64,000 nt of DNA, from the IMG/VR virus record IMGVR_UViG_3300047095_000666, positions 1 through 64,000 of that record. The stretch is one strand, 5' to 3'. The DNA comes from a virus. The notes beneath the pieces were generated by a model. It searched no databases and had not been told where the DNA came from. It saw only the letters and a list, made by a program, of their open reading frames with translations. Both the position numbers and the translations under genes were made by a program. This document shows, one piece after another, positions 19,962-36,821 of this stretch. Position 1 is the stretch's first letter. Each line of letters opens with the position of its first letter.

Positions 19962-22016
19962 TTAGTACTCGAATGCTTCGTCGATGTCGCCCTTCTTCCG
20001 GGCGCTGTCGTTGATGCCGAGGATCTTGACCGCTTCTTCCTCGTTGATGATCTTGACTCCGAGGTCCAGCGCCTTCTTGTTCTTGACGGTTCCGGAGGAG
20101 GTATCGTTGGTGATGAGGAAGTCGGTCTTGCTGCTGATCGAAGAAGCCATCTTATGACCCCTCAGCTCGATGGCCGCTTTGAAGTCCTCCCGGCTGTACC
20201 CTTTCAGGTTGCCGGTGACGACGACGCTGTACTTCTGGCCCGATACTTGGTTCGCTTGGACTTGCTCGGAGAAGCTGACGACTTTCACGCCGCTCTCCTT
20301 GAAGGCTTTGAACACTCCTTCAGCCCGTTCCCGGCTCTTCAGGATAGTCTCGACAAGAGCCTTACCGACGCCATTGATCGCGACCAGCTTCTGCTCCAGC
20401 CGGTTGGGCTTCTCGCCGAACAGGGTCTCGATGCCAACGTGGCGGAGGATCATCTTGGCTCGGTCGCGGCTCAGGAACTCGATGTTCAGAGAACCCAGCA
20501 GCTCGTAGTCGTAGATGCCCTTGTCGGAGTAGATCCGGTCGTTCACGGCCTTGCAGATCTGCTTGGCGGAAGTCTTACCGAAGCCCTCCGTGCGGGCGAT
20601 GACTGCTTCTTTGGTGGAATCGAAGTCTAGGTAGTCCTCGATTCCTTCGATGATCCCGACGTCATACAGAGCCTTGATCGTGTTCCGCTTGATGCCCTTC
20701 ACGTTGAGCTTTTCGAGGAACTGCTGTAGGTGGCCGATCTTGACGAGATCGCACTCCTCGTTGACGCAGTACAGGAACACGCCGTCGTTGTGGAGTTTCG
20801 ACCCGCAGCAGGTGCATTCCGTCGGAGGGAGGAAACGCTTTGCAACGTTCGTCGGCTGACCGGGGATCTTGTCGACGTACCCGAGCACGTCGTTGTTCAG
20901 CGAGAAGAGCATCCTGTCGCCGTAGTGCAGCTTCAGGTCCATGAACCGACGATAGTTAGCCAGGGACACTTTTTGGTAGGTAGCACCGTTCATGATGACA
21001 GGCTCCAGCACAGCCACGGGGGTGTACGTTGCAGTGTTGCCATCCGTGTACCACTCCATGTCCAGCAGCTTCGTTTCCTTCTCCATGTAAGGGAGCTTGA
21101 AGGCGATAGCGAAGTTGGGACGGTTGTCGGTGTACCCCAGCTCCTCTCTGAGCTCTTGATCGGAAGTCTCGACCACGATGCCGTCGATCATGTAGTCTAG
21201 TTCGAGGCGAGTCTCGGCGATAGTCTTGTACATCTCTGCCAGCTCGTCTACCGACTCGACTGTCATGATCTCCATCTCGTCGAAACACTTGATCTTCCCG
21301 TTCAGGGAGGAAAGAGCTTCGAGCTCAACGAAGCGGGTGACGTGGCCTGCGGTGATTGCTCGGTACTTGAGCGGGATCAAGGTCAGGTACTTTGCCATCG
21401 GGACGCCGTCTTCCTTGATGATGCCGCCGATCGCCGAACGAGGGTTCTTGTAGGATGTCCCGAACTCCTCGTTCAGTTTTACGAGGTTCTTCCACGAGAT
21501 CACTGCCTCGAAGCCGAGAGCGAAATCTTCGATCTTCTCGTCGTCCACGTCCGGCATCTCGATCGGCTTGATGAACGAGCAGTCCCAAGCCTTCTTGAAG
21601 TACCCGGTGAGGTCCTTGCCCACGCCGTCTTGGCCGCGAGTCAGAGCCTTCTTCATCTTGTTCTTGACGAACTCGAAGTTGATCGAGTGACCGTCATACT
21701 TCAGCGAGACGAACAGCGGATTCTTCGCGCTGACCTTGATCCCCTTGGACTTGAGCCAAGCTTTGAACTCGTCGAGGGTGTTCACCTTGTCGAGTGTGCC
21801 CGCGAGGTTGTCGTAGCTATGGGATAGCGTCACGGTGCTGGAAACGTTCGGAGCCGCACCGATCTCGAATCGCTTTCCGGCGACCTTTTCCCAGGCATCC
21901 TTGAGGCTGTCAAAGTCCTCGTCGGACATGACCTTCGTCTCCGTGTTGTAGTACGCCAGAGAAGCTTCGCGGAGCTTCTTCTCGACTTCCTTCAGATTCT
22001 TCTTCGTCACTTCCAT
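19962..22016 (-). CDS. ligA: NAD-dependent DNA ligase (684 aa)
   Basis: Full-length LigA architecture. The N-terminal Ia-like region is followed by adenylation site SLKYDGHS with catalytic Lys106, then RGDG-like TRGQDGVGKD and the adenylation-domain motifs down to AFKLPYM. The OB fold is followed by a four-Cys zinc finger (CTCCGS...CVNEEC), helix-hairpin-helix repeats (KLNVKGIKRN, GINGVGKAL-type) and a C-terminal BRCT domain (VVTGNLKGYSREDF). It seals DNA nicks using NAD+. Length is close to bacterial enzymes (~670). Start ATG 22016 follows TGAGGAGGCACT. Last gene of an operon with the (p)ppGpp-hydrolase-like gene. Confidence 0.96.
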   Translation of the reverse strand: MEVTKKNLKEVEKKLREASLAYYNTETKVMSDEDFDSLKDAWEKVAGKRFEIGAAPNVSSTVTLSHSYDNLAGTLDKVNTLDEFKAWLKSKGIKVSAKNPLFVSLKYDGHSINFEFVKNKMKKALTRGQDGVGKDLTGYFKKAWDCSFIKPIEMPDVDDEKIEDFALGFEAVISWKNLVKLNEEFGTSYKNPRSAIGGIIKEDGVPMAKYLTLIPLKYRAITAGHVTRFVELEALSSLNGKIKCFDEMEIMTVESVDELAEMYKTIAETRLELDYMIDGIVVETSDQELREELGYTDNRPNFAIAFKLPYMEKETKLLDMEWYTDGNTATYTPVAVLEPVIMNGATYQKVSLANYRRFMDLKLHYGDRMLFSLNNDVLGYVDKIPGQPTNVAKRFLPPTECTCCGSKLHNDGVFLYCVNEECDLVKIGHLQQFLEKLNVKGIKRNTIKALYDVGIIEGIEDYLDFDSTKEAVIARTEGFGKTSAKQICKAVNDRIYSDKGIYDYELLGSLNIEFLSRDRAKMILRHVGIETLFGEKPNRLEQKLVAINGVGKALVETILKSRERAEGVFKAFKESGVKVVSFSEQVQANQVSGQKYSVVVTGNLKGYSREDFKAAIELRGHKMASSISSKTDFLITNDTSSGTVKNKKALDLGVKIINEEEAVKILGINDSARKKGDIDEAFEY

Positions 22017-22025
22017 AGTGCCTCC

Positions 22026-22205
22026 TCAGAGTTTGGCTTTGTTGCTGAACCAGTTGGAGATGCGAGTGGTCAGATCCCCGGCATGCTTGTTGGCATTGTC
22101 GTTCGGGAATTGCTGGACTATCTCCCAGAATGCTTGAGCGTCCTGCTCGGTTTCGAGGGTCAGCGTGATGGGGCTGAATTTCGGTTTCGTTTGTTTGATA
22201 TCCAT
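22026..22205 (-). CDS. Small hypothetical protein (59-60 aa)
   Basis: Two adjacent ATG codons (22208 and 22205) follow AGGAGGC. The second gives better spacing; the first overlaps the upstream stop as ATGA. The product is 59 residues with an acidic helix (ETEQDAQAFWEIVQQF). Lies between the HD-hydrolase gene and the ligase, nine bases before the latter. Function unknown. Confidence 0.75.
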   Translation of the reverse strand: MDIKQTKPKFSPITLTLETEQDAQAFWEIVQQFPNDNANKHAGDLTTRISNWFSNKAKL

Positions 22206-22774
22206 CATGCCTCCTGGAGTTGGATGTTGTACATTGCGGAGTGCCGCCTGAGCTGCGCGGTAGCGAGCTCGTGCAGAGTCCGGTTGCCACGACCGAGGAC
22301 TAGCAGGAGCATAGACTTCTCCATCAAGTACGTCGGAGCGAATTTGGGATCCTTCTCAGCGATGTCCTCGCCGTTGTCGATAAGATCGGCAAGCTTGATA
22401 GTCTGACCGTCGTCGGACGCTTCTGCAAGGTGCAGCCGGTCGATTTCCTTCCGGCGCTCTCGGTTCCCGTCTTGAGGGGTTGACACGTCCGAGACTTCGT
22501 CCACCAGATTGGCGATCCTCGTCCCGAAGTGTCTCGCGATGTCTTTCTTAGTTCGCTTCGTGTCTTCGATGACGTCGTGCATGAGAGTCGCGGCATGCAC
22601 TTCAGGATCGTCGTTCACGGTCTGGACAATCCTGAGAACTCTGATTGGGTGGATGATGTACGGCTCTCCGGAGTACTTTCGGACTTGGCCGATCTCGGCA
22701 TGAGCTTCGGAGGCGTAGAGCAGTGCTCTGCTGACGACTCCTAAGTCTGATTGCAGTGATAACAAAATCGTCAT
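22205..22774 (-). CDS. Mesh1/SpoT-like HD-domain (p)ppGpp hydrolase (189 aa)
   Basis: Stand-alone hydrolase domain without a synthetase or TGS region. Visible motifs: ASEAHAEIGQVRKYSGEPYI, IHPIRVL with metal-binding His42, LMHDVIEDT with His66-Asp67 and Glu70-Asp71, GTRIANLVDEVSDVS, and IKLADLIDN near residue 125. Family members remove pyrophosphate from (p)ppGpp with Mn2+. Mesh1 enzymes are ~180 residues, as here. In a phage it would relieve the stringent response or cancel (p)ppGpp-like signals in defence. The alternative substrate NADPH, known for some Mesh1 proteins, is not excluded. Confidence 0.88.
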   Translation of the reverse strand: MTILLSLQSDLGVVSRALLYASEAHAEIGQVRKYSGEPYIIHPIRVLRIVQTVNDDPEVHAATLMHDVIEDTKRTKKDIARHFGTRIANLVDEVSDVSTPQDGNRERRKEIDRLHLAEASDDGQTIKLADLIDNGEDIAEKDPKFAPTYLMEKSMLLLVLGRGNRTLHELATAQLRRHSAMYNIQLQEA

Positions 22775-22800
22775 GAGTTGTTCCTGTTATTAGGCACGAC

Positions 22801-22813
22801 AATAATATATTTA
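22801..22813 (-). promoter_or_regulatory. AT-rich promoter box for the ligase operon
   Basis: On the minus strand GTAAATATATTATT lies about 30 bases before ATG 22774. It fits the ATATAT(T/A)AT box seen before other operons. It also marks the boundary with the ter-type module upstream. Confidence 0.55.
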
Positions 22814-22824
22814 CGTCTGGCAGC

Positions 22825-22995
22825 TTAGCGGTGACGCAGGATTGACAAGATCTGAGGGTTCACCTGCACGGACGAACCCCGGCGCGGAGACAGGGGTCTG
22901 CGAGACGCAGAGGCTTGAGGACCGCACTGTTTCCAAGCGGCTCCTCCGGGAACGTTCCAGAGGTTTATCGGTGGCAGTTTCAGTTCAGGCCACAT
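22825..22995 (-). CDS. Possible small Pro/Arg-rich protein (56 aa)
   Basis: ATG 22995 follows ATGGAGTCATT; the frame also extends to 23043 through a terminator, which is unlikely to be coding. The predicted peptide starts MWPELKLPPINLWNVPGG and has a Ser/Pro/Arg-rich second half. It lies between a strong minus-strand terminator (23007-23036) and the ligase-operon promoter box, so its transcription would need read-through. Weakly supported. Confidence 0.4.
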   Translation of the reverse strand: MWPELKLPPINLWNVPGGAAWKQCGPQASASRRPLSPRRGSSVQVNPQILSILRHR

Positions 22996-23006
22996 AATGA
23001 CTCCAT

Positions 23007-23036
23007 AAAAAAAAAAAGAGGGGGCATAACCCCCTC
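23007..23036 (-). terminator. Rho-independent terminator ending the ter-type module
   Basis: GAGGGGG / CCCCCTC with a 5-base loop, preceded on the plus strand by eleven A residues (T-run in the minus transcript). Lies three bases after the last stop of the ter-type operon. Confidence 0.88.
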
Positions 23037-23039
23037 GTT

Positions 23040-23705
23040 TCACATGTACACTTGGACGCCTCGTTGCATTCGCTCCACGCTCTCTATGCTCTCTTCGACA
23101 GCTTTGATTTGCTGCTTGGTGAGTTCAAGAGACGTGTGGCAGTGGTCGCAGTATCGCATCCTGTCGGAAAGATCTCTGTTCGACTTGCCGGACTTGAATA
23201 GGACTTCCAGAGTGGTTGACAGGTCGCGCATGGTCTTGCTCAGTCTTTCGACCATAGAGCGGAGAGTTTCGATCTGCTTCTTGATCGAGGCTACCTCGGC
23301 AGTACCAGCTTGAACACCGAAGCGCCACCCAGAGATTGCCGCGTCCATTTTATTCTTGATTGCGGGGATCCACATCAAGAAGGACAGCCTCTTCCGCCAC
23401 TGCACCAATCGCAAGTGCTGCTCGATGGCTTCTTTGACTGGGAGCCCGGAAAGCTTTACCGAGAGCTCGTTCACGTTGCGGTCATACCTCTTCCAGTCAT
23501 CGATGCCTTCGTCGCAAACCTTGTTCAGGTCTATTTTTCCGGCGAAGTGCGCGGAGATGTAAGGAGTGACCCTCACATTATCCTCCGAGCTCATCTTCTC
23601 AAGAACGACCAGAACTTCGATCGGAATCGGGGAACGTCGCTCGCCGAGAACCCCCTGTTTGGGAGTCCTCGGCGCAGCCCCTTTGTCGAAGAGGGGCTTG
23701 ACCAC
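23040..23705 (-). CDS. Hypothetical protein of the ter-type module, helical with CDHC motif (221 aa)
   Basis: GTG 23705 is preferred: GAGGAAGACTAAC precedes it and it starts one base after the TerD-like stop. The frame upstream to 23801 is a shadow. The product is 221 residues, basic, with a long predicted helix or coiled coil from ~residue 130 (SIKKQIETLRSMVERLSKTM) and a single YCDHCH motif near the C-terminus that could share a metal. No domain recognised. Its place at the end of a TelA/TerD operon suggests a partner of those proteins. Confidence 0.75.
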   Translation of the reverse strand: MVKPLFDKGAAPRTPKQGVLGERRSPIPIEVLVVLEKMSSEDNVRVTPYISAHFAGKIDLNKVCDEGIDDWKRYDRNVNELSVKLSGLPVKEAIEQHLRLVQWRKRLSFLMWIPAIKNKMDAAISGWRFGVQAGTAEVASIKKQIETLRSMVERLSKTMRDLSTTLEVLFKSGKSNRDLSDRMRYCDHCHTSLELTKQQIKAVEESIESVERMQRGVQVYM

Positions 23706-23706
23706 G

Positions 23707-24303
23707 TTAGTCTTCCTCGACTTCGCCGCCGTACTGAACCACGAAGTCGCCCAGACCGAGGTTGTACCCGGCACCGACCGCCTTGAAGTTCCAGCCGCCA
23801 TCCTTCAGGTACAGACTGCCGAACTGCACGGCGGTCTCCAGCGAGAAGTTCTCCTCCAAATCGTAGGAGGCGATCAGCTCGTTGGTCTCGTCGTCGAAGA
23901 GCTTGATGTCGCTCTTCGGTACCTGACCGAAGTTCTGACGGCGAACATCGGCGTCGTGGATCGTCACGATGAACGAGATCTCCACTGCGACCGGGTTCAT
24001 CTTCGGCAGGTCGATGAAGACGATCTCGTCCGGGCCAGGACCGTCGCCGGTCTTGTTGTCGCCCTTGTGGGTGACTGCGCCTTCCGGGGAAGTCTTGTTA
24101 CCGTAGAACACCATGTACTCGTCGGCGATGAGCTGGTTGTTCGGTTCACCTGCTTTCAGGATGAACACGCTGACGTCCAGATCGAACTTGGAGCCGGTGT
24201 TGGTCTTGTTGGGTTCCCACGACAGTTCTGCGCGGATGCGCTTCAGAGTCGGAGCTTCCTTGGCCAGATTGATACGGCCACCTTTCTTCAGGCTGATTGC
24301 CAT
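23707..24303 (-). CDS. TerD-family protein, copy 1 (198 aa)
   Basis: Begins with the TerD signature AISLKKGGRINLAKEAP and continues with LDVSVFIL, HKGDNKTGDGPGPDE (the acidic calcium-binding loop) and INFIV-type strands, then IASYDLEENFSLETAVQFG and a WNFKAVGAGYN end. TerD-family proteins are calcium-binding beta-sandwich domains in the ter stress and tellurite modules. Length (~190) is normal. The VSFILxxAG region is preserved, so it should fold. ATG 24303 follows GAAAGGATAAAGAA; five bases separate it from the TelA-like gene. Confidence 0.92.
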   Translation of the reverse strand: MAISLKKGGRINLAKEAPTLKRIRAELSWEPNKTNTGSKFDLDVSVFILKAGEPNNQLIADEYMVFYGNKTSPEGAVTHKGDNKTGDGPGPDEIVFIDLPKMNPVAVEISFIVTIHDADVRRQNFGQVPKSDIKLFDDETNELIASYDLEENFSLETAVQFGSLYLKDGGWNFKAVGAGYNLGLGDFVVQYGGEVEED

Positions 24304-24307
24304 TTCT

Positions 24308-25372
24308 TTATCCTTTCAGTTTCTGAACGAGTTCTTCGCGGAGTTCACCAGCACGTTTGAAGGTCTGGCTCCGCTTCTGGATTGCGTCGTTGACGACGTT
24401 GTTGACATCGGTGATCGCGCCGATGAGTTCGTTCTGGGCGAATTCAAGGGTCTCGATCTCGACCACTTGGCGGTTTGCCACCCGAGCCACGTCTCCGGCG
24501 TTCTGGCGCAGCATGGATGCGTTTCGCTTGACCATCTCGTTGGTTGCGTCGTGTACCGTGTCAGCAACCTTGACTGCGGTCTGCTGCTCCATGTGCAGGA
24601 TCTGCAGTGAGAACTGCTTTTCCCACGCCGGGATGGTGACGTCAACCACGTCCCGGAAGGTGCCGATCATCTGGCGGGCCGACTCCTGCATCAGACGGAT
24701 CTGAGGTGCAGTCTGGAAGGCCATCGTCCGGTTGAGCTCGAAGTTGACGATCTTCTTCTCAAGGCGGTTGATCTCGGCCCGCTTGTCGGCGATTCGCTGA
24801 CCGTGGAACTCGTCGGTTGCTTCTTCCGCGACCAGAGCGTCGAGCTCAGCCTTGAGATCTTCCAGAGCAGCCTTGCACTGCTCCATCAGATCACCGAATG
24901 TCTGATAGTCCTGCTCGTTAGCCGCGTACATGGCATCCAGAGTCTTGATCTGGTCGTCCATCTTCTTGGCCTGACCTCGGACTTCCTCGACGACCTTCCC
25001 GATCTGCTCCTTGACGGTGCGGTGCTTGGCGAAGAATTGCTCCTTCTTGAGCTTGGCATTCGTCCAGAGCTTGCTCAGGAAGCCGCCTTCTTTCAGGTCC
25101 TTGGGATCGAGCTGCTTCGAGATCACGATGATCTCGGTGAGCCGCCCGCCAAGTTCCTGCAGCGAGGAAGTTTTAGTCATCTCCAGCAGGGAGTTGTTGA
25201 CGGAGGAAGTGCGCGTCACGACGTCCCGACCGAACCCGTCGATGTCGGACAGCACCGGATGCCGAGCGGCCTTCGGCTTGACGATCACAGCGTTTGCTTC
25301 GGCGTGAGGGTAGCTTGTCACGCGCTGCAGGGTTTTCTTCTTCTCGGCGAAGAGAGGCTTTGGTCCATTCAT
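24308..25372 (-). CDS. TelA/KlaA-like toxic-anion-resistance family protein (354 aa)
   Basis: ATG 25372 lies in an ATGA overlap with the preceding TerD-like gene; the frame to 25432 is a shadow. The 354-residue helical product has the TelA arrangement: an N-terminal region ending in LGGRLTEI, a long central coiled region (QAKKMDDQIKTLDAMYAANEQ, EINRLEKKIVNFELNR), then RLMQESARQMIGTF and IPAWEKQFSLQI, and a tail with ANRQVVEIETLE. TelA proteins accompany TerD/TerC proteins in stress and defence modules; their biochemical activity is not established. Confidence 0.88.
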   Translation of the reverse strand: MNGPKPLFAEKKKTLQRVTSYPHAEANAVIVKPKAARHPVLSDIDGFGRDVVTRTSSVNNSLLEMTKTSSLQELGGRLTEIIVISKQLDPKDLKEGGFLSKLWTNAKLKKEQFFAKHRTVKEQIGKVVEEVRGQAKKMDDQIKTLDAMYAANEQDYQTFGDLMEQCKAALEDLKAELDALVAEEATDEFHGQRIADKRAEINRLEKKIVNFELNRTMAFQTAPQIRLMQESARQMIGTFRDVVDVTIPAWEKQFSLQILHMEQQTAVKVADTVHDATNEMVKRNASMLRQNAGDVARVANRQVVEIETLEFAQNELIGAITDVNNVVNDAIQKRSQTFKRAGELREELVQKLKG

Positions 25373-25941
25373 CCCACCAGCTCCTTGAAGGTGCGACCGT
25401 TCTTGTACTCGCCGACAGCTTCGAACTCCCACACGTTACCAGTGCGAGTCACGGTTCCAACGACGATGCCGGTCTTGTCTACGCCACCGGCCATGTCGAA
25501 CTCTGCCAGAATCGCGCCACTCTCGTCGCGGATGTGGCAATATGCGGTCTGGATCTTGGAGAAGGTCTGACCACGGAAGCTGCTGATCGTGAAGGTCAGC
25601 TGGTCCACCGAGTCAGGCAGCTTCGTCAGATCGACCACGATGGTCTCGTCGTCGCCGTCTCCTTCCCCGGTCAGGTTATCGCCGGAGTGCTGGATGGCAC
25701 CGCCGAAGGCACGGAGGTTGCCGAAGTAGACTGCGTTGTTCTGGAAGCTGCCGTTCTGGCGGATCACGCAAGAAGCGTCGAGGTCAACTGCTTCCATGGA
25801 GGTGGACTTGAACATCCCGAAGATGCCGCCGGATTCTTTCTTGATCGGATCCCACGCAAGGCCGATCTTGACGACGCGTAGCCCGTTGCCGTCGCCCTTG
25901 GCAAGACTAATCTTGCCACCCTTTTTGAGTTTGATAGCCAT
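25369..25941 (-). CDS. TerD-family protein, copy 2 (TerZ-like, 190 aa)
   Basis: 190 residues starting AIKLKKGGKISLAKGDG. The family motifs are intact: VDLDASCVI, the calcium loop HSGDNLTGEGDGDDE, INF-type DQLTFTISSF and a TGNVWEFEAVGE end. More similar to TerZ/TerD of bacterial ter operons than its neighbour copy 1, because the DLDASC strand is canonical. ATG 25941 follows AGGAGAAAGAAA. Paired with copy 1 it may form hetero-oligomers; that is inference from operon structure. Confidence 0.93.
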   Translation of the reverse strand: MAIKLKKGGKISLAKGDGNGLRVVKIGLAWDPIKKESGGIFGMFKSTSMEAVDLDASCVIRQNGSFQNNAVYFGNLRAFGGAIQHSGDNLTGEGDGDDETIVVDLTKLPDSVDQLTFTISSFRGQTFSKIQTAYCHIRDESGAILAEFDMAGGVDKTGIVVGTVTRTGNVWEFEAVGEYKNGRTFKELVG

Positions 25942-25964
25942 TTTCTTTCTCCTGAAGAAACGAA

Positions 25965-25980
25965 GAGGGCCGAAGCCCTC
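25965..25980 (-). terminator. Short hairpin after the TerC-like gene
   Basis: GAGGGC / GCCCTC around a CGAA tetraloop, followed on the minus strand by TTCGTTTCTTC. Small stem, probably an attenuating terminator between TerC-like and TerD-like genes; read-through would supply the downstream ter genes, for which no separate promoter box is visible. Confidence 0.55.
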
Positions 25981-25992
25981 CTTGGTTGATGA

Positions 25993-26691
25993 TTAAGCCG
26001 CTTCGCGCTTCGGCATGTGACGAGCAGCGAGAACGGCGAAGACGACGGCAGCGAAGCCGACGATCTTGTAGGACAGATGAGTCCAGTCGCCGGTCACATG
26101 ATGGACGCGAGCCATGTAGTCTGCCAGCAGCGGATCGGAGATCATCATCTCCGCACCGACCCAGCCGAGCAGCCCTGCACCGACCCAGATGATGATCGGG
26201 AACTTGTCCATCAGCTTCATGATGCCTTGAGCGCCGAACACGATGATCGGGATCGAGAGCACGATGCCAGCGATGGCGTAGGCGTTGCTGTGGGTACCGG
26301 CTGACTGCGCTGCACCTGCCACGGCGAGTACGTTGTCGAGAGACATCATGAAGTCAGCGATGATGATCGTCTTGACAGCACCCCAGATGTGCTGGGAGGA
26401 TGCGACCTCGTGCTCGTCGTCGTTCTCAGACAGGAGCTTGTAGCCGATCCAGAGCAGGTAGCCACCTGCAACCAGCTTGACTGCCGTGATGTCCATGAGA
26501 TAGGATGCGAAGACCAGCAGCACGGCTCGGAGGATCACAGCACCGGCGGTGCCGTAGATCACGGCGCGACTGCGAAGAGCAGCGGGGAGGGAGGCGCAGG
26601 CCAGAGCGATCACTACGGCGTTGTCAACGCCGAGCATGATGTCGATGCCGACGATCTTCAGGATCGCAGAAAAATCGATGGTGAAGTCCAT
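25993..26691 (-). CDS. TerC-family integral membrane protein (232 aa)
   Basis: 232 residues with about six or seven membrane segments. The TerC hallmarks are two acidic-Asn motifs in helices: IDIMLGVDNAVVIAL (residues ~16-30) and ADFMMSLDNVLAVAG (~112-126), both with the conserved DN pair predicted to bind metal ions. Related to the YjbE/YceF-type TerC branch by its size. Predicted to export or handle metal ions (manganese in several bacterial members) in the inner membrane, linked to TerD-type proteins. ATG 26691 after GAAAGGTAACACAA. Confidence 0.92.
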   Translation of the reverse strand: MDFTIDFSAILKIVGIDIMLGVDNAVVIALACASLPAALRSRAVIYGTAGAVILRAVLLVFASYLMDITAVKLVAGGYLLWIGYKLLSENDDEHEVASSQHIWGAVKTIIIADFMMSLDNVLAVAGAAQSAGTHSNAYAIAGIVLSIPIIVFGAQGIMKLMDKFPIIIWVGAGLLGWVGAEMMISDPLLADYMARVHHVTGDWTHLSYKIVGFAAVVFAVLAARHMPKREAA

Positions 26692-26724
26692 TTGTGTTAC
26701 CTTTCGTTGCAGATAGAAATGAAA

Positions 26725-26748
26725 CCCCCATGAGAGTTCTCATGGGGG
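26725..26748 (-). terminator. Hairpin terminator before the TerC-like gene
   Basis: CCCCCATGAGA / TCTCATGGGGG, a perfect 11-bp stem with a 2-base loop; the minus transcript continues TTTCATTTC. Separates the 27760-26761 pair from terC. Confidence 0.75.
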
Positions 26749-26760
26749 ATCGTGTTGACC

Positions 26761-27012
26761 TTAGCCTTGCTGGCTGTCGGTCGGGGCGGCAGGCGCTTCA
26801 GCGCCTTGGGGGGCTTCCGGAGCTTCCGGCGCAGCAGCGACGACGAAGGTCACTACGGTCATGGCACCGTTGGGAACGGGCTGAACCTTGGTGGCGACGT
26901 GTTGCACTTGCTGCGGTTGCAGACCGGAGACTTGAGCGTAACGCTCCAGCACCAGTTCAGCGATTTCTGCCTCGGTCAGAGAGAGGCTCTTGGTTTCGTA
27001 GAGTTGCGGCAT
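26761..27012 (-). CDS. Small hypothetical protein with Ala/Pro-rich tail (83 aa)
   Basis: 83 residues. The first 60 form a compact alpha/beta unit (LTEAEIAELVLERYAQVSG, then a VTFVV strand); the last 22 are an Ala/Pro/Glu-rich flexible tail (APEAPEAPQGAEAP). ATG 27012 follows AAGGAAAAGGCA. Situated between a 245-residue unknown and the TerC-like gene; no family recognised. Confidence 0.78.
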   Translation of the reverse strand: MPQLYETKSLSLTEAEIAELVLERYAQVSGLQPQQVQHVATKVQPVPNGAMTVVTFVVAAAPEAPEAPQGAEAPAAPTDSQQG

Positions 27013-27022
27013 TGCCTTTTCC

Positions 27023-27760
27023 TTAGTTGAAGAGTTCGAAACGGCAGCGCATCACACCTTCCGTCCACTTCTGGACGAGGTGGGGATGGATGGGCTTGAC
27101 GTTGTTGTGCTTTGCTACCTTCTTGTTTGCCGGGACAAGTTTGCCCTTTTCACGCTTCGGAGGTTGATGCTTGATGAAGAGATCGTCCAAGTCAATGTCG
27201 AAGCTTTCCTTCATGTACGCGATGACTTCGCGGGACATGTCGTGTCCGTTCTCCAGAACCAGCTTCTTGACCTTCTCGATGCGCTTCTCAAGGAGCTGGT
27301 CGTCGTTACTGAAGATCTCGATGGCCTCGTTGCGGAGCATGATCCGCTTGATCTGAGCCGTGACGTCCTCTTCGGATTCTTCGTTCTTCTCCTGCTTTTT
27401 CTTCTTCGGGGCGGGAGCAGTTTCTTCCTCCTCGTCGGCTTCCCAGAGGAGTTCCTTGATCTGGTGCTCTTCGTTCTGGAGGCTGACCGCGACTGCGCGG
27501 CCTTCCTCCGTGGTGGTCACGGTGATGTGCAGGAATTCGTCCACGAAGTTCTTCTTGAGGAAGTCTTCGTGGACGACGAGCACGGTGCCCTCACTCACCA
27601 AAACGTAGTCGCCGATGGAGACACGCTGCTTGGTATCATTGACCAAATACTCGTCACCTTTGTACTTCTTGCAGAGATTCTTCAGAACCTCATTTTCCTT
27701 CCAAGCGTCGGTGAACTGGTGTGCTTCGAAGGGGGTATTCATTCTCGCAAAGACTTGCAT
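27023..27760 (-). CDS. Hypothetical protein with charged linker (245 aa)
   Basis: 245 residues. The N-terminal ~100 residues are beta-rich (VSIGDYVLVSEGTVLVVHED), followed by an acidic/lysine-rich linker (DEEEETAPAPKKKKQEK) and a basic helical C-terminal half with an HQPPKREKGK segment. ATG 27760 after GAAAGGAAAAGGCA. First gene after the AT-rich box at 27815-27826, so it heads the ter-type transcript. Not a known Ter-associated family that I recognise. Confidence 0.8.
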   Translation of the reverse strand: MQVFARMNTPFEAHQFTDAWKENEVLKNLCKKYKGDEYLVNDTKQRVSIGDYVLVSEGTVLVVHEDFLKKNFVDEFLHITVTTTEEGRAVAVSLQNEEHQIKELLWEADEEEETAPAPKKKKQEKNEESEEDVTAQIKRIMLRNEAIEIFSNDDQLLEKRIEKVKKLVLENGHDMSREVIAYMKESFDIDLDDLFIKHQPPKREKGKLVPANKKVAKHNNVKPIHPHLVQKWTEGVMRCRFELFN

Positions 27761-27898: not shown

Positions 27899-28633
27899 TC
27901 AGACAGAGAAGATGACTTCCATCGCCTTCTCGTAGACGCCATCAGCGGGGTCGATGATTCCCTCGATCGCCATACCGTTCTGTTCTACTGCCGCAAACTG
28001 TACGGCTTCGGAAGGCTCATTGATGTGCTCGATCGCGAGGCCGTTCTGGCGCACAGCAGTCAGCTGCACGTCTTCCGAGGGATCCTCGATGTGCTCGATC
28101 GCGAGACCATTCTGAGCGACAGCGGCGAGCTTCATTGCCTCGGAGGGATCCTCGATGTGCTCGATCGCTTCCCCGTCAGAGGTCAGAGCCAGCATGATGA
28201 GTTCCTCGCTCATGTGCTCTTCAGGAACGTGCTCGATCGCGAGGCCGTCAGTGGCGACGGCCAGCTGCGCCAGCTCGGCGTCCAAATCCTCCGAGTAGAG
28301 GTGCTGGATGACCGAAGGATCAGCCTTGATCGCGACCTCCAGAGCAGCGCGGGAGCGATTCTCTGCCACCTGAGTGATGCTGTAGGGGTTCTGCTCGGCG
28401 GCTGCGATCTGCACTGCCTCCGAAGGATCCTCGATGTACGAGATGGCGATGCCGTCCTTCCGGACAGCAGTCAGCTGCACGTCTTCCGAGGGATCCTCGA
28501 TGTGGAGGATTGCCTTCGGATCCTGCTCCACGGCAGCGAGCTGCACTGCCTCCGAAGGGTCTTCGATGAAGCGAATCGCGTTGCCGTTCTTTTTCACGGC
28601 TGCGAGCTTCTGCTTCTCTGTGATTTTGGCCAT
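27899..28633 (-). CDS. Tandem-repeat protein, ten ~22-24-residue units (DUF4116-like, 244 aa)
   Basis: Nearly the whole protein is made of ten units with the pattern QLAAV.(Q/K)(N/D)G.AI.(H/Y)I(E/D)DPSE(A/D)V. Units 4-6 are the most divergent. The A..(N/D)..(AL/AI) spacing recalls DUF4116 repeats, which form stacked helical hairpins. The even spacing suggests a solenoid for binding a partner. ATG 28633 after GAAAGGAAATCGA; fourteen bases downstream of the topoisomerase A gene, so co-transcribed. Role unknown. Confidence 0.85.
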   Translation of the reverse strand: MAKITEKQKLAAVKKNGNAIRFIEDPSEAVQLAAVEQDPKAILHIEDPSEDVQLTAVRKDGIAISYIEDPSEAVQIAAAEQNPYSITQVAENRSRAALEVAIKADPSVIQHLYSEDLDAELAQLAVATDGLAIEHVPEEHMSEELIMLALTSDGEAIEHIEDPSEAMKLAAVAQNGLAIEHIEDPSEDVQLTAVRQNGLAIEHINEPSEAVQFAAVEQNGMAIEGIIDPADGVYEKAMEVIFSV

Positions 28634-32269: not shown

Positions 32270-34654
32270 TCAGTAGCTCAGCTCTTCACGATCGAGACCG
32301 TCGAAGATCTCGTTCATGAATTCCTTGCGGAAGTCGACGCGGTTAGATGACATGAAGTTCGTTACGACAGTCTTTGCATCGGCCAGATCGTCCACTCCGA
32401 TGCGGACCAGCTCGCGGTTGTCGGGGCTGAGGGTGGTGTCCCAGAGTTCTTGAGAGTTCGCCTCGCCGAGTCCCTTGAAGCGAAGCACGGAGTACTGCTT
32501 GTTGAGCTGGCTGTTGATAGCCGCCATCCGACCGTAGATCGTGCTGGACGCAATATCCTTGCCGTCAACGCGGTGGATCTCGACTGTCGTGGCCAGATCG
32601 ACGTAGCTGCCCTCGTGCAGCCCGACGAGACTGCCGTAGAACTCTTCGGCGTTCTCGTTCACCACGGCGAGGAAGGTCTCCTCTGCGGTGTCGGAGTCTC
32701 GGTGGAAGCCGACGATGGAGATCTTGTCGTCGTCCACGTCCATCTTCACCTTCTTCTTGTCAAAGCCGAATTCGTAGGTCTCGTTGTCGAAGTTCTTCAG
32801 GAACGCCAGCTCGTAGATGTGCGGGTCCACACGGTACTTGCCAGCCGCCTGCTCCACCTCACGGCAGTACTGGCGGAGCCGACCGAACAGCTTGCGCTTC
32901 ACCTTAGAGGAGGTCACTTCCTTCCCGTCCACGAAGAACTTGAACGTCTTCTCGGCCTCTGCGAGGAAGAAGGCGTCGAGGTCGGCGGTGGTCTTCAGGT
33001 AGATCGGCTTCCGTCCGGCTGCGGTGACGCGGTAGAGCGGCGCTTGAGCGAAGTAGAGCTTCCCAGCTTGTACCAGCGGCTCGAAGAGCTCCAGATAGTT
33101 AGTCAGCATCAGGAGCTTGATGTGGTGTCCGTCGTCGTCGGCGTCGGCGGCGATGATCACCTTGTCGAACTTGCACTTCTCAGAGTCGATGGCTTCCTTG
33201 ACGCCGCAACGCATCACGGAGATCAGGTCTGCCAGCTCCTTATTCTTGTAGATCTTCTCAATGTCAAGACCGAGCGAGTTCAGGGGTTTGCCCTTCAGCT
33301 CGTACACGGCCTGGAAGTTCTTGTCACGACCGTCACAGATGGTGCCTGCTGCAGACGAACCCTCGACGATCCACAGCTCTGCCACGGACGGGTCATCCTT
33401 CAGGCAGTCGGAGAACTTGCTGATGCTGTTCAGGGAACTCAGGAAACCACCGGCTTCCTTCTTCACCGTGTCGAGCGCCCGCTTCGAGGCGATGCGAGCC
33501 TTGGCGGTCAGAGCAAAACGCTCCGCCAGACGCTTCATCTCCTTGGCGTTCTTATCCAGCCACTCGCGGATACCCTTGGAAGCCACGGCGAACACGCATC
33601 CGTTGACCTCGTTGTTGGTCAGCTTCTGCTTGGTCTGGGTGGCGTACTTCGGGTTCAGGACGAACACGGATACGATGGCCGAGAGGCCGTTGTACATGTC
33701 GTCGTTCTCGATGGCCTCCTTGCAGAGCTTGTTGGTCTTGACGTAGTCCGTGAAGTACTGGCTCACGGTGCGCTTGAAGCCGGTGACGTGGACACCACCC
33801 TCGCTAGTGCGGATCGTGTTGGTGAAGGAGTGGATGTCCTCGTCGCGGAAGTCGGTCGTCCAAGTGAAGGAGATCTCCACCTTGACATCCTTGTCGATGC
33901 CGCTGATCGTGATGGGCTTGACGATCTGCTTCTTCGGGTCTACGAACTCCTTGATGAACTCCTCGGTGCCGTGCTCGAACTTCCAGCGGTGGAGCTCGGA
34001 CGATGCCGCCAGCGACTCCTTGTAGGTGATCTCCAGACCGTTGTTGAGGTAGGCGGTCTCGCGGAGGAGCTTGATCACCTCGTCGTTGGCGACGTAGGAC
34101 TCGAACAGCGTCTCATCCAGAGCGAAGTTCACGCTGGTCCCGGACTTGTAACCCTTGACCGGCTTGGCGTTGTTGTCCACCTTGACAGTCTTCTTCAGGC
34201 CCTCGTTGAACTCGATGCGGCCCTCGGACTTATCACGTCGGGAGGTGACGATGAACTTGCTGGAGACGGCATTCACGCAGGACGCACCAACGCCATTCAG
34301 GCCGGTGGTGTACTCGGTCTTGTTCGCGTCGAAGTTGCGACCAGAGTGTAGCTCACCGAAGATCACCTCAAGAGCGTTCTTGCCAGATTCGTGGCGCTGA
34401 AAGGGAACACCGCGACCGTTGTCGGCGACGATGAACTCGTTTTCAGACACCCGAACTACGTTGATCATAGTGCAGTAACCGCGAAGGAACTCGTCCACAG
34501 AATTGTTGACGATCTCGCGGAGGCAGGTCAGGGAGCCGTACTCATCCAGATTCGACAAGTAAATTTGAGGCCGTTTCCGGACGCACTCTGGAAACGGTAA
34601 TTGTTTAATCGAGTCTGCATCATACGTCTCGTTCTTTTTGACTTTCGCGTTCAT
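32270..34654 (-). CDS. Type IIA DNA topoisomerase subunit B (GyrB/ParE-like, 794 aa)
   Basis: The N-terminal GHKL ATPase shows LREIVNNSVDEFL (Asn/Glu site), VADNGRGVPF and TGLNGVGASCVNAVS loops. The transducer region follows. The TOPRIM domain has LWIVEGSSAAGTI (Glu), YELKGKPLNS and IIAADADDDGHHIKLL (acidic triad). The tail near residue 740 carries RFKGLGEANSQELWDT, as in GyrB/ParE. Partner of subunit A at 28647. Its ATG at 34654 overlaps the preceding homing-endonuclease-like gene, whose last codons contain the ribosome site. Confidence 0.96.
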   Translation of the reverse strand: MNAKVKKNETYDADSIKQLPFPECVRKRPQIYLSNLDEYGSLTCLREIVNNSVDEFLRGYCTMINVVRVSENEFIVADNGRGVPFQRHESGKNALEVIFGELHSGRNFDANKTEYTTGLNGVGASCVNAVSSKFIVTSRRDKSEGRIEFNEGLKKTVKVDNNAKPVKGYKSGTSVNFALDETLFESYVANDEVIKLLRETAYLNNGLEITYKESLAASSELHRWKFEHGTEEFIKEFVDPKKQIVKPITISGIDKDVKVEISFTWTTDFRDEDIHSFTNTIRTSEGGVHVTGFKRTVSQYFTDYVKTNKLCKEAIENDDMYNGLSAIVSVFVLNPKYATQTKQKLTNNEVNGCVFAVASKGIREWLDKNAKEMKRLAERFALTAKARIASKRALDTVKKEAGGFLSSLNSISKFSDCLKDDPSVAELWIVEGSSAAGTICDGRDKNFQAVYELKGKPLNSLGLDIEKIYKNKELADLISVMRCGVKEAIDSEKCKFDKVIIAADADDDGHHIKLLMLTNYLELFEPLVQAGKLYFAQAPLYRVTAAGRKPIYLKTTADLDAFFLAEAEKTFKFFVDGKEVTSSKVKRKLFGRLRQYCREVEQAAGKYRVDPHIYELAFLKNFDNETYEFGFDKKKVKMDVDDDKISIVGFHRDSDTAEETFLAVVNENAEEFYGSLVGLHEGSYVDLATTVEIHRVDGKDIASSTIYGRMAAINSQLNKQYSVLRFKGLGEANSQELWDTTLSPDNRELVRIGVDDLADAKTVVTNFMSSNRVDFRKEFMNEIFDGLDREELSY

Positions 34655-35604
34655 TTTCTTCCTTTCACAAATTGGTCGATTACTTCTCGGATCCTTGTCA
34701 TGTGATCCTCAGTGTAGTCTATCCGGATTAACGTTATGCCGTTTTCTTGGCAAAACGCGTTCTTGATGGAATCTCTTTTAAGCTGGTCTTGCTGAGACTC
34801 TCTCCAGACAGAATTATTGGAAGCAAATTTCATTGGATCATGTTGACTCCCGTCATACTCAACTAAAATGAATTCATTGCCACCGGTATGTATTCCGAAA
34901 TCGAATGCTAATGGTTTTTTATTTCTACATTCATCAAATTTCACTTCTTCTTCAAAGTGTATTCCTTCCTTCAATAGAAAGTCTTTAATTTGAAGATGAG
35001 CTTTGGAGTGTTTTCGCAAAGAATTGCATTTAGGACAACGATCACCACATATGAATCGCATTGGTTTTACGTTGTACTCATGACTTTTACAGGTCTCACT
35101 GTTATGACGGATCAGTATTGGAGTAGCGTTGTTGACGTACTCACCAAGTACTTCGTACTCTCCGCCAGTCATGTTGCTGACTTCTTTAGCAAACACAAAG
35201 GTTGTTTTCTTTTGCCTCTTTGAGCAGATGGGACAAGTTCTTCCTGCGAGTATCTTTACCGGAGCAACTAGGTATGTGTGGCTGGAACCGTTTTCGTCCG
35301 TGTGTTCGACTTCAACTTTTTCTTTGTTATTCACATACCTTCCTATTACCCTGTAAGACTCTCCATGTAGATCTGAAACTTGCTGTACGAAATCCGAGTG
35401 TGTCTTCTTTGGAGTGCCAAAGCATTTAGGACAACGGTCTCCTCTCAGAAATCGTTTAAACGATGTACTAAAGACGTTTCCGCACACCGGATGAAACACT
35501 GAAAGTGTATCCACCGCACGGATATACTCTGAGCTTTTCAACTCATAGCCTTCCTGTGCTATGTAAATTCGCACTTCATCTAAAGTGTGCGGTTTCTTCC
35601 CCAT
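34651..35604 (-). CDS. Free-standing homing-endonuclease-like gene (zinc ribbons plus Vsr/EDxHD-type nuclease, 317 aa)
   Basis: 317 residues, strikingly AT-rich against its neighbours. Three repeated units each hold a CPxC pair (GDRCPKC, GRTCPICSK, GDRCPKCNS) separated by ~65 residues and resembling zinc-ribbon DNA-recognition modules. The C-terminal ~110 residues look like the Vsr-related nuclease fold of I-Bth0305I-type homing enzymes: LAFDFGI, FILVEYDGSQHD (acid-acid-x-x-x-His) and GITLIRIDYTEDH. The gene sits exactly between a small phage gene and the topoisomerase B start, flanked by a 14-bp direct repeat containing the ribosome site. A mobile, cutting enzyme is the best reading; a non-homing nuclease remains possible. 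Confidence 0.8.
   Translation of the reverse strand: MGKKPHTLDEVRIYIAQEGYELKSSEYIRAVDTLSVFHPVCGNVFSTSFKRFLRGDRCPKCFGTPKKTHSDFVQQVSDLHGESYRVIGRYVNNKEKVEVEHTDENGSSHTYLVAPVKILAGRTCPICSKRQKKTTFVFAKEVSNMTGGEYEVLGEYVNNATPILIRHNSETCKSHEYNVKPMRFICGDRCPKCNSLRKHSKAHLQIKDFLLKEGIHFEEEVKFDECRNKKPLAFDFGIHTGGNEFILVEYDGSQHDPMKFASNNSVWRESQQDQLKRDSIKNAFCQENGITLIRIDYTEDHMTRIREVIDQFVKGRK
34655..34668. repeat. 14-bp direct repeat, right of topoisomerase B start (copy 1)
   Basis: TTTCTTCCTTTCAC on the plus strand (GTGAAAGGAAGAAA on the coding strand), identical to 35604-35617. Contains the ribosome site of the topoisomerase B gene and codes for the last residues (VKGRK) of the inserted gene. Confidence 0.8.
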
Positions 35605-35617
35605 TTCTTCCTTTCAC
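35604..35617. repeat. 14-bp direct repeat, left boundary of the inserted gene (copy 2)
   Basis: Exact second copy of TTTCTTCCTTTCAC, providing the ribosome site of the homing-endonuclease-like gene and overlapping the stop of the gene before it. The pair brackets the inserted gene almost to the base. Confidence 0.8.
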
Positions 35618-35940
35618 TTGCAAAGCAATTTCTTGCGGTGGTCGTCGATGTCTCGGGAGAACCACTTGACGATCGACAGCATTTCCTTGAACGTGTTCTC
35701 CGACACCTCCTTGAAGGAGCTGCACTGCACCGATGGACTAGACCCATCACAGTAGAACACGTCATCCTCTTGGACGGTCCTGTGACCGTACCACTTAGAT
35801 AATATATCGTCGATCACCGTTTGGAGGAATTCCTCCGCCTCCTCCGTCTCGCAGGAGATCCGGACGATGATCGTGACGTTGCTGCTCGACTCGCCGTGAC
35901 CTTCGATGAGGGAGACGGCGTAGTGCTTGCGGATCTTCAT
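35614..35940 (-). CDS. Small protein, tandem paralogue of the next gene (108 aa)
   Basis: 108 residues. Shared landmarks with the gene at 35937: (H/R)YAV/YFAV near the start, a HG(E/D) turn, ..(C)E...AE.FL...IDD/IDG, (S)DWYG / SKWYG, FK..(L)EN/EST F, and a final D(I/D)DD.RK. Acidic, no cysteine motif. ATGA coupling to its paralogue. Function unknown; the two likely arose by tandem duplication. Confidence 0.8.
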   Translation of the reverse strand: MKIRKHYAVSLIEGHGESSSNVTIIVRISCETEEAEEFLQTVIDDILSKWYGHRTVQEDDVFYCDGSSPSVQCSSFKEVSENTFKEMLSIVKWFSRDIDDHRKKLLCK

Positions 35941-36263
35941 TCCATTAGCCTCGCTTTCCTCACCTCGTCGATGTCGTATATCTCAGTGTACATGAAACCC
36001 TTGAGGTCGTCGAACGTACTCTCCAGAATCTCCTTCTTGTTTTTCAGGTACACGAAGTAGGAGTCGTCGGACTTGCAGAACGAGTCTCCGTCCCGGTAGG
36101 TGCCGTCGCCGTACCAGTCTGACATGGTTCCATCGATCATCTCGTCGAGGAACTGTTCGGCCTCGAAGTCCTCGCAGGTCAGGTGGAAGAGCCGGAAGAG
36201 GCTCTCCTCGATGTCTCCGTGCGCCTCGGTGAACTTCACCGCGAAGTAGCGATCACGTTTCAT
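35937..36263 (-). CDS. Small protein, tandem paralogue of the previous entry (108 aa)
   Basis: ATG 36263 (MKRDRYFAVKF) is preferred over 36287 because it aligns with the start of its paralogue and overlaps the end of the upstream gene by 11 bases. 108 residues; it carries the shared AEQFLDEMIDG and SDWYGDGT segments. Acidic, Asp-rich. Function unknown. Confidence 0.8.
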   Translation of the reverse strand: MKRDRYFAVKFTEAHGDIEESLFRLFHLTCEDFEAEQFLDEMIDGTMSDWYGDGTYRDGDSFCKSDDSYFVYLKNKKEILESTFDDLKGFMYTEIYDIDEVRKARLME

Positions 36264-36672
36264 TTGGGTGCTCCCAGAGAGGGACAAAGAGCTTCTTACC
36301 TTCCAGCGGAGTTATCGCGTTCAGCATCTTGAACGTGAACTCGGCGTAGAAGAATGGGTGGAAGTGGCCAAGACGCAGCATGACATCTGGGTCCGTACAT
36401 CGCCCGACTTGGATGCTGGCGTCCAAGACGAGACGCTTGTTCTTCAGCGTGATCAGCTCGGTGCTGATCTTGTGGAGCATAGAAGCCGTCTCCATCTTGC
36501 TGGTCGTCAGCCCGTTCATCTGCTCGAATATGATCTTCCCGATCAGCTTGGCATAGATGAAGTCGATGTCCTCCTCGTGGACACGGTTTTTGTTGACGCG
36601 TATGATTTTGACGTAGTTCTCCAACACGGCTGTCAAGTCGCACAGCGGTGGACTGAAGTTAGGTCTCTCCAT
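36253..36672 (-). CDS. Hypothetical protein (139 aa)
   Basis: ATG 36672 follows GAAAGGAAACGAA; the frame to 36774 crosses the AT-rich promoter and is not coding. 139 residues, helical middle (IYAKLIGKIIFEQMNGL), a His/Phe-rich segment (LGHFHPFFYAEF) near residue 110. First gene of the operon leading to topoisomerase B. No family recognised. Confidence 0.8.
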   Translation of the reverse strand: MERPNFSPPLCDLTAVLENYVKIIRVNKNRVHEEDIDFIYAKLIGKIIFEQMNGLTTSKMETASMLHKISTELITLKNKRLVLDASIQVGRCTDPDVMLRLGHFHPFFYAEFTFKMLNAITPLEGKKLFVPLWEHPNET

Positions 36673-36736
36673 TTCGTTTCCTTTCGTGAACTTTCTTACT
36701 GCTGTTGAGTTAGCCCCCTCGCGCGAATAATACTTA

Positions 36737-36760
36737 TATTCTTTTATATTATATATAAGG
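36737..36760 (-). promoter_or_regulatory. AT-rich promoter region of the topoisomerase B operon
   Basis: The minus strand holds CTTATATATAATATAAAAG, with a second TATAAG-like element next to it; 24 of 28 bases are A/T. It lies 70-90 bases before ATG 36672 and 20 bases after the terminator of the preceding operon. Confidence 0.65.
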
Positions 36761-36779
36761 GAACTTCGTTTCACCCTTA

Positions 36780-36816
36780 CAAAAAAAGTGAGGGATCATG
36801 TAGAACGATCCCTCAC
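36780..36816 (-). terminator. Rho-independent terminator
   Basis: GTGAGGGATC / GATCCCTCAC, a 10-bp perfect stem, with eight A residues at left on the plus strand (T-run in the minus transcript). Ends the MoxR-VWA operon. Confidence 0.9.
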
Positions 36817-36821
36817 GCGAA

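What the first reader, a model, noticed from the sequence alone, without database searches (positions are those of the whole stretch)
22825..27760. Phage-borne ter-type module: two TerD-like, TelA-like, TerC-like and three unknown partners
The order unknown-245aa / unknown-83aa / TerC / TerD / TelA / TerD / unknown-221aa is a compact ter operon. Bacterial ter genes are tied to tellurite tolerance, colicin resistance and inhibition of phage infection. A phage carrying the set with intact calcium and metal motifs suggests superinfection exclusion, neutralisation of a host ter-type defence, or control of metal stress. The three associated unknowns could be new components.
Basis: partly seen in the sequence, partly recalled or inferred. 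Interest (0 to 1): 0.78.

Follow-up and report, generated by a model that had tools for sequence, protein, structure and literature searches.

The report
Ter stress module in jumbo phage
A large bacterial virus carries a small set of genes borrowed from a bacterial metal and membrane stress system; its nearest known relative has thrown most of that set away, so the genes are an optional extra that probably protects the infected cell, and they are not part of the virus's core machinery.

Summary
The genes are real. The fragment belongs to a phage related to jumbo phage phiR1-37. It encodes a YjbE-type TerC, two TerD proteins with intact calcium motifs, TelA and a coiled-coil 221-aa protein. It is not one seven-gene operon. 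Terminator-like hairpins separate 245-83 from TerC, and TerC from the tightly coupled unit TerD-TelA-TerD-221. The closest relative found (topoisomerase 79%) keeps 245, 83 and TerC but has lost the rest through a ~3.9-kb deletion. That deletion left the first 14 codons of TerD fused in frame to DNA ligase, and the relative's TerC has lost predicted metal-site acidic residues and is truncated. So 245 and 83 are backbone genes, and the Ter unit is dispensable cargo. Ter modules in phages, and their proposed role against superinfection, are already published. What differs here: no vWA/TerF, a TerD-TelA-TerD core matching a Photobacterium replicon, a phiR1-37-type phage, and an N-terminal KPLF motif shared by TelA, the 221-aa protein and TelA of several other operons. 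Function is inferred: protection of the infected cell's envelope or metal balance against rivals or stress.

The parts
27023..27760 (-). 245-aa protein: N-terminal alpha/beta part, acidic linker, helical part. Backbone gene next to topoisomerase, probably not a Ter component
   Evidence: ORF; 47% identical homologue at the same place in relative L024, which lacks TerD/TelA; no homologue in the phage records or in phiR1-37; low-confidence fold, pLDDT 55
26761..27012 (-). 83-aa acidic protein, probably co-transcribed with 245 (touching genes, same ribosome-binding site AAGGAAAAGGCA)
   Evidence: 95-aa positional homologue in L024, 26% identical with a conserved N-terminus; ends before a terminator-like hairpin
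26725..26748 (-). terminator-like hairpin CCCCCATGAGA-ACTC-TCTCATGGGGG region plus T-rich tail between 83 and TerC; also present in L024
25993..26691 (-). TerC, YjbE subfamily (TIGR03717), with intact transmembrane acidic residues (D17, D23-N24, D113, D119-N120)
   Evidence: Pfam 7.4e-45; NCBIfam TIGR03717 197 bits, over the cut-off of 134.8; invariant acidic columns against phage TerCs
25963..25982 (-). terminator-like hairpin GGAGGGC-TTCG-GCCCTC between TerC and TerD
   Evidence: matching position in L024
25369..25941 (-). TerD paralogue A, with a Phe-rich insertion loop and intact DxDxS and GDN motifs
   Evidence: Pfam 1.7e-40; 40% to Photobacterium pGJ3-1 second TerD
24308..25372 (-). TelA; N-terminal KPLFAEK motif; start codon overlaps the TerD stop codon
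   Evidence: Pfam 6.2e-60; PHROG 5890 'tellurite resistance' 2.9e-72; 31% to Photobacterium TelA
23707..24303 (-). TerD paralogue B, canonical TerD with intact motifs
   Evidence: Pfam 1.1e-59; PDB 2kxt/2kxv 3e-48; 52% to Photobacterium TerD
23040..23705 (-). 221-aa basic all-helical (coiled-coil) protein, GTG start, N-terminal KPLFDK motif; candidate TelA partner
   Evidence: no homologue found in phages, IMG/VR or GTDB genomes with these searches
23018..23036 (-). strong terminator-like hairpin with T10 tail, end of the Ter unit
22205..22774 (-). HD_4 / SpoT-Mesh1-like hydrolase, a separate gene inside the segment deleted in the relative; link to Ter unproven
   Evidence: Pfam HD_4 2.4e-17; TIGR00691 RelA/SpoT 1.5e-25; absent from L024 between TerC and LigA
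21989..25897 (.). segment corresponding to the ~3.9-kb deletion in relative L024 (from codon 15 of TerD-A to codon 9-10 of ligase)

Best explanation
This is an accessory, dispensable Ter-type module carried by a phiR1-37-like jumbo phage. Shown by sequence: a YjbE-type TerC membrane protein; a coupled unit TerD-A/TelA/TerD-B/221; and loss of that unit with decay of TerC in the closest relative. Inferred: TerC acts at the inner membrane on Mn2+/Zn2+-like ions, the two TerD proteins are calcium-binding sensors, and TelA with the 221-aa coiled-coil protein assembles under the membrane, both using a shared N-terminal KPLF motif to dock on a common partner. The most likely purpose is to keep the infected cell's envelope and metal balance robust while the phage replicates, making the cell harder for rival phages, bacteriocins or stress to take over. 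The 245-83 pair upstream is a separate backbone unit.
For: Families and intact motifs. Hairpins and gene coupling define separate units. In L024 the order is topoA-245-95-TerC-LigA, with the TerD start fused to LigA: 31 of 45 nt, the best of 5575 start-like positions in the window. TerC in L024 is accelerated (31 changes against 10, p=0.0015) while ligase is clock-like (41 against 51), and it lost D17, D23 and D119 plus its C-terminus. Same-type genes recur next to each other in many phages and in plasmids. A terC deletion in Klebsiella pneumoniae raised phage sensitivity modestly and lowered Zn/Mn resistance (PMC12054061). TerC proteins metalate exported enzymes in B. subtilis (PMC10550928). 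A role in superinfection was proposed for jumbo-phage Ter genes (PMC7824862).
Against: No functional test of a phage Ter module was found in the papers I read; authors of phiPsa374 call the function unknown and tellurite resistance unlikely (PMC9796965). Loss in the relative shows it is not needed in every host. The Klebsiella phage effect was small. A standalone intact YjbE TerC beside topoisomerase in another viral contig (L046) shows that TerC can occur without TerD/TelA, so TerC may not be coupled to the others. The docking role of KPLF is inference only.
Confidence: 0.5

Rival explanations
1. Metal homeostasis only: TerC and the TerD/TelA proteins buffer or deliver Mn2+/divalent metal in the infected cell to supply phage or exported host metalloenzymes, with no role against rivals.
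For: TerC is the YjbE subfamily and not the plasmid Alx-type; TerC metalates exoenzymes and has modest Mn efflux activity in B. subtilis (PMC10550928); Zn and Mn induce ter in Klebsiella (PMC12054061); a standalone YjbE TerC occurs in another viral contig.
Against: Does not explain why TelA and two TerDs are kept tightly coupled; no Mn riboswitch (yybP-ykoY) was found near TerC; the relative persists without intact TerC.
Confidence: 0.25
2. Counter-defence: the phage copies poison or decoy a host Ter-type defence complex by swapping in altered subunits.
For: Bacterial ter genes can inhibit phages (Whelan 1995, cited in PMC12054061 and PMC9796965); the phage set is partial, lacking vWA and TerB.
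Against: All binding motifs are intact and do not look dominant-negative; a four-gene coupled unit is more than a decoy needs; the same vWA-less core exists in a bacterial replicon.
Confidence: 0.1
3. Passenger cargo: acquired bacterial genes of no use to the phage, on the way to loss.
For: Lost in the closest relative by a simple deletion.
Against: Every frame in the window is intact with all motifs kept; the scar implies the module was already in the common ancestor of two phages 79% alike in topoisomerase; independent lineages of phages keep equivalent modules; GC of the locus (0.568) is close to that of the window (0.547).
Confidence: 0.1
4. Tellurite resistance gene set of benefit to the host during long infection.
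For: Family names; TerC with TerD plus another TerD-type protein is the minimal tellurite unit in E. coli, as summarised in PMC12054061.
Against: YjbE TerC is a different subfamily from Alx-type TerC; tellurite is rare in nature; phiPsa374 authors judge resistance unlikely (PMC9796965).
Confidence: 0.05

Closest known systems
Abbreviated Ter modules of phages: Otagovirus (phiPsa374, VCM), Caulobacter/Brevundimonas jumbo phages, Rhizobium TM phages, Xanthomonas XaC1, Acinetobacter 313
   Same: TelA or a TelA-like protein, TerC-type membrane protein and TerD in one cluster, small size; TerC 57-62% identical to Otagovirus TerC
   Different: All those examined carry a vWA (TerF-like) gene next to TerC or DUF475; here vWA is absent from the whole 97.9-kb record, there are two TerDs, and the order is TerC-TerD-TelA-TerD-221
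Photobacterium sp. GJ3 replicon pGJ3-1 locus (L049)
   Same: TelA followed by the same two TerD paralogues (52% and 40% identical), no vWA match anywhere on the replicon, and a TelA-like coiled-coil partner next to TelA
   Different: No TerC seen beside it in the stretch read; the partner there is 375 aa and homologous to TelA (HH probability 97), while homology of the 221-aa protein to TelA is not shown (about 2%)
Burkholderiales plasmid ter operons (Caballeronia grimmiae p1/p2, Burkholderia vietnamiensis G4)
   Same: TelA best hits (30-33%) and TerD (47-49%); a further gene follows TerD; KP[LI]F motif at the TelA N-terminus
   Different: TelA-vWA-DUF475-TerD-hypothetical, with vWA and DUF475 in place of TerC
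Plasmid terZABCDEF (R478-type) tellurite/colicin/phage-inhibition operon
   Same: TerD domain and TerC superfamily
   Different: No TerB in the record, only two TerD-domain proteins, YjbE-type and not Alx-type TerC, TelA present

Membership tests
Ter-dependent stress/conflict system (broad) | TerD domain with calcium motifs | tested here: met
   Pfam 1.1e-59 and 1.7e-40; motifs
Ter-dependent stress/conflict system (broad) | TelA | tested here: met
   Pfam 6.2e-60
Ter-dependent stress/conflict system (broad) | TerC-superfamily membrane protein | tested here: met
   Pfam 7.4e-45; TIGR03717
Ter-dependent stress/conflict system (broad) | TerF-like vWA protein | tested here: not met
   none in the 97.9-kb record with PF10138 or with an eight-sequence phage/plasmid vWA model that finds held-out positives; the record is incomplete, so it could lie elsewhere in the genome. 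Not every Ter locus has this gene, so the broad filing stands
Ter-dependent stress/conflict system (broad) | TerB | tested here: not met
   no PF05099 match in the record; also none in phiPsa374 or CcrPW, so phage Ter modules commonly lack it
Ter-dependent stress/conflict system (broad) | phosphoribosyltransferase / HAD signal-synthesis arm | not tested
   no such gene among the ORFs of the locus; whole genome not scanned for it
Phage abbreviated Ter module (Otagovirus/Caulobacter type) | TelA-vWA-TerC(or DUF475)-TerD order | tested here: not met
   order is TerC-TerD-TelA-TerD-221, compared with the order in the phage loci
Superinfection-exclusion system | blocks a second phage | not testable with these tools
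   needs plating or adsorption assays
Tellurite-resistance determinant | raises tellurite MIC | not testable with these tools
   needs MIC assay
TelA family (for the 221-aa protein) | profile homology to TelA | tested here: not met
   phmmer 5 bits and hhalign probability about 2%
phiR1-37-like msRNAP jumbo phage | multisubunit RNAP related to phiR1-37 | tested here: met
   RNAP beta' 44.6% over the full length to phiR1-37, next best 35%; PHROG 2987

The most novel reading that the evidence does not exclude
TelA and its coiled-coil partner in phage and plasmid Ter modules carry a shared N-terminal short motif (KPLF/NLF/SVF type, repeated several times in some partners) that docks both proteins on one common receptor. 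The 221-aa protein would then be a new Ter component recruited by sharing TelA's docking motif, in a vWA-less Ter architecture that phage and bacterium share.
Probability: 0.25. Interest if true: 0.6.

Novelty: new variant of a known kind. Interest (0 to 1): 0.42.

Why it matters
Ter genes are widespread in bacteria, plasmids and phages, but what they do in a phage is unknown. This pair of related phages is a natural experiment, one with the module and one with a clean deletion scar. It separates core from cargo, points to the four-gene unit to express, removes two of the three 'unknown partners' from the list, and offers a concrete docking motif to test. It also puts a Ter module into the phiR1-37-type phage group; the passages of the Iyer et al. 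2021 survey that I read list TerC/TerD/TelA only for groups 2 and 3.

Tried and rejected
Seven-gene operon: rejected because of the hairpins and the relative's synteny. 245 as a ter component: rejected for the same reasons; a resemblance of its N-terminus to a common phage domain was recalled but not supported by PHROG, Pfam or PDB, and its model is poor (fold search gave nothing). The ~84-aa gene beside TelA in Otagovirus is not detectably related to the 83-aa protein. The 221-aa protein as a TelA fragment or as a homologue of the gene after TerD in Caulobacter phages/Caballeronia: not supported; its fold model is low confidence (pLDDT 56) and matches only generic helical bundles. Defence-library hits (LmuB, JetC) are generic coiled-coil matches. 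Rfam found no riboswitch. dN/dS was uninformative because synonymous sites are saturated. Single-protein scans of IMG/VR for TelA, 245, 221 and ligase found no relatives, since their exact-word patterns are strict. MT836648 'Bacteriophage sp.' with close TerDs reads like bacterial chromosome (inferred from its ORFs).
Full report
What is there. The window is the first 64 kb of a 97,885-bp virus record. It encodes a multisubunit RNA polymerase subunit 44.6% identical over its full length to that of Yersinia jumbo phage phiR1-37, a NAD-dependent ligase, type II topoisomerase subunits and homing endonucleases. phiR1-37 has the multisubunit polymerase but no chimallin (PMC10299810), so I do not call this a nucleus-forming phage. 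No phage record matches the 40-64 kb part by megablast.

The Ter genes. Minus strand, in transcription order: 245 aa, 83 aa, TerC, TerD-A, TelA, TerD-B, 221 aa. Pfam scores leave no doubt for the four named genes. TerC belongs to the YjbE subfamily (TIGR03717, 197 bits against a cut-off of 134.8) and not to the Alx-type subfamily. Both TerDs keep the DxDxS and GDNxTGxGxGxDE motifs; TerD-B matches the solved tellurite resistance protein chains 2kxt/2kxv at 3e-48. Only two TerD proteins, one TelA and no vWA-TerF or TerB occur in the record. The vWA model found vWA genes in three held-out records, so the negative is meaningful for the 98 kb held; the genome is incomplete.

Units. TelA's start codon overlaps the stop codon of TerD-A; TerD-B and the 221-aa gene follow within a few bases. 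By contrast, hairpins followed by T-rich tails lie between 83 and TerC, between TerC and TerD-A, and after the 221-aa gene (15 terminator-like sites found in the region against 6.5 expected in shuffles). The 245 and 83 genes share the same ribosome-binding site and touch each other. So there are at least two and perhaps three transcription units. Read-through cannot be excluded.

The relative. A scan with the neighbouring topoisomerase gave one close relative, L024 (94,984-bp contig, 79% amino-acid identity). There the order is topoA, 245 homologue (47%), 95-aa homologue of the 83-aa gene, TerC, LigA. No TerD or TelA is found anywhere on that contig. The ligase of L024 begins MSLKPTKGGKINLA before joining the ligase sequence; the window's TerD-A begins MAIKLKKGGKISLA, while the window's ligase shares none of these residues after the Met. 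At DNA level the relative matches the window from upstream of TerC through the hairpin and the first 45 nt of TerD-A (31 of 45 identical, the best of 5575 start-like positions in the window), then switches to ligase codon 9-10. The simplest account is a ~3.9-kb deletion in the relative's lineage removing TerD-A (after about 14 codons), TelA, TerD-B, 221, the HD_4 gene and the small ORF, and leaving the TerD start to drive the ligase. An insertion in the window's lineage cannot easily explain a TerD start fused to the relative's ligase.

TerC after the loss. The relative's TerC has D17S, D23E and D119S at columns invariant in the intact phage TerCs compared, a premature stop and frameshift near its C-terminus, and falls below the YjbE cut-off (129.6 bits). 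Against Otagovirus TerC as outgroup it changed alone at 31 sites, the window's at 10 (p=0.0015); ligase shows no such imbalance (41 against 51, p=0.35). With the Acinetobacter TerC as outgroup the counts are 19 against 9 (p=0.09). Thus TerC is relaxed or lost once TerD/TelA are gone. This suggests functional coupling, but a standalone intact YjbE TerC sits next to a topoisomerase gene in another viral contig, L046, with no TerD, TelA or vWA in 129.6 kb, so coupling is not universal.

Comparison with other modules. TerC hits 45 phage records, nearly all Otagovirus-type at 57-62%; TerD hits 171 and TelA 258 phage records. In the Otagovirus, Caulobacter, Brevundimonas, Rhizobium, Cygsa01, XaC1 and Acinetobacter loci examined, and in the IMG/VR loci with a TerC and TerD, a vWA gene is present. 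Lysinibacillus phage LysYB2 is an exception, with two TerDs and a TerC-type gene and no vWA detected in the stretch read. The window's TerD/TelA core is closest to bacterial replicons: Photobacterium pGJ3-1 has TelA-TerD-TerD with the same two paralogues (52% and 40%), including the Phe-rich loop of TerD-A, and no vWA match on the whole replicon. Burkholderiales plasmids have TelA-vWA-DUF475-TerD-hypothetical. TerC by contrast is closer to phage TerC (about 60%) than to the plasmid ones (about 48%), so the set may be of mixed origin.

The 221-aa protein. It is basic, predicted helical and without a transmembrane segment. It begins VVKPLFDK; the TelA of the same unit begins MNGPKPLFAEK. The same KP[LIV]F sits at the N-terminus of Photobacterium TelA (KPVFVN), Caballeronia p1 TelA (KPIFGD) and p2 TelA (KPLFDD, just upstream of the annotated start). 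XaC1 TelA has NLFKD and its neighbour XaC1_433 has four NLF copies. Otagovirus TelAs begin MSVFxKAG or similar. A motif written after seeing these gives 16 hits against 2.0 in shuffles, none of 3000 reaching 16. Because the motif was chosen after the fact this is a lead, not proof, and per-operon similarity tests are significant only for XaC1. Caulobacter and IncP kla TelAs lack it.

Function. Published facts: terC, terD and terZ insertions reduce phage inhibition by R478, and a terC deletion in Klebsiella modestly increases phage plaques and lowers Zn/Mn/tellurite resistance (PMC12054061). TerC proteins metalate exported enzymes and have minor Mn efflux activity (PMC10550928). Jumbo-phage Ter genes were proposed to act against superinfection (PMC7824862). 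The function in Otagovirus is unknown and tellurite resistance unlikely (PMC9796965). terD genes are highly transcribed in gut Jug phages (PMC12363816). I infer an accessory envelope/metal-stress module that protects the infected cell; anti-rival action is the more likely benefit, metal homeostasis alone the main rival.

Novelty. Phage Ter modules and the superinfection idea are known. New here are the vWA-less TerD-TelA-TerD-221 variant in a phiR1-37-type phage, the deletion scar, the separation of 245/83 from the module and the KPLF lead.

Noticed in passing
window 22205-22774 (-): HD_4 domain protein resembling the hydrolase half of SpoT/Mesh1, with HDVIEDT and KLADLIDN motifs: a possible phage (p)ppGpp hydrolase just downstream of the Ter unit and inside the segment deleted in L024.
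   Followed up: partly
L024 14343-16409: NAD-dependent DNA ligase whose N-terminus is a fused remnant of a TerD start, a deletion scar that keeps the ribosome-binding site of the lost gene.
   Followed up: yes
L046 6983-7735: Intact YjbE-type TerC alone beside a ParC-like topoisomerase gene in a 129.6-kb viral contig without TerD, TelA or vWA.
   Followed up: partly
L047 around 6998-7040: The annotated start of Caballeronia grimmiae p2 TelA (WP_244797704.1) is probably too far downstream; the KPLFDDEK motif is encoded just before it.
   Followed up: partly
window 27899-28633 (-): DUF4116 repeat protein between topoisomerase and the 245-aa gene; absent at that place in L024.
   Followed up: no
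L022 6327-7331: XaC1_433 (334 aa) next to TelA carries four near-identical YxNLF repeats in its N-terminal region, matching the YGNLF start of its TelA.
   Followed up: partly
L011: GenBank 'Bacteriophage sp.' MT836648 (UNVERIFIED) reads like a bacterial chromosome fragment with a full ter operon (phosphoribosyltransferase-like genes, TelA, three TerDs).
   Followed up: no
window 34651-38485 (-): At least two HNH/homing endonuclease genes near the topoisomerase large subunit gene, suggesting mobile insertions.
   Followed up: no
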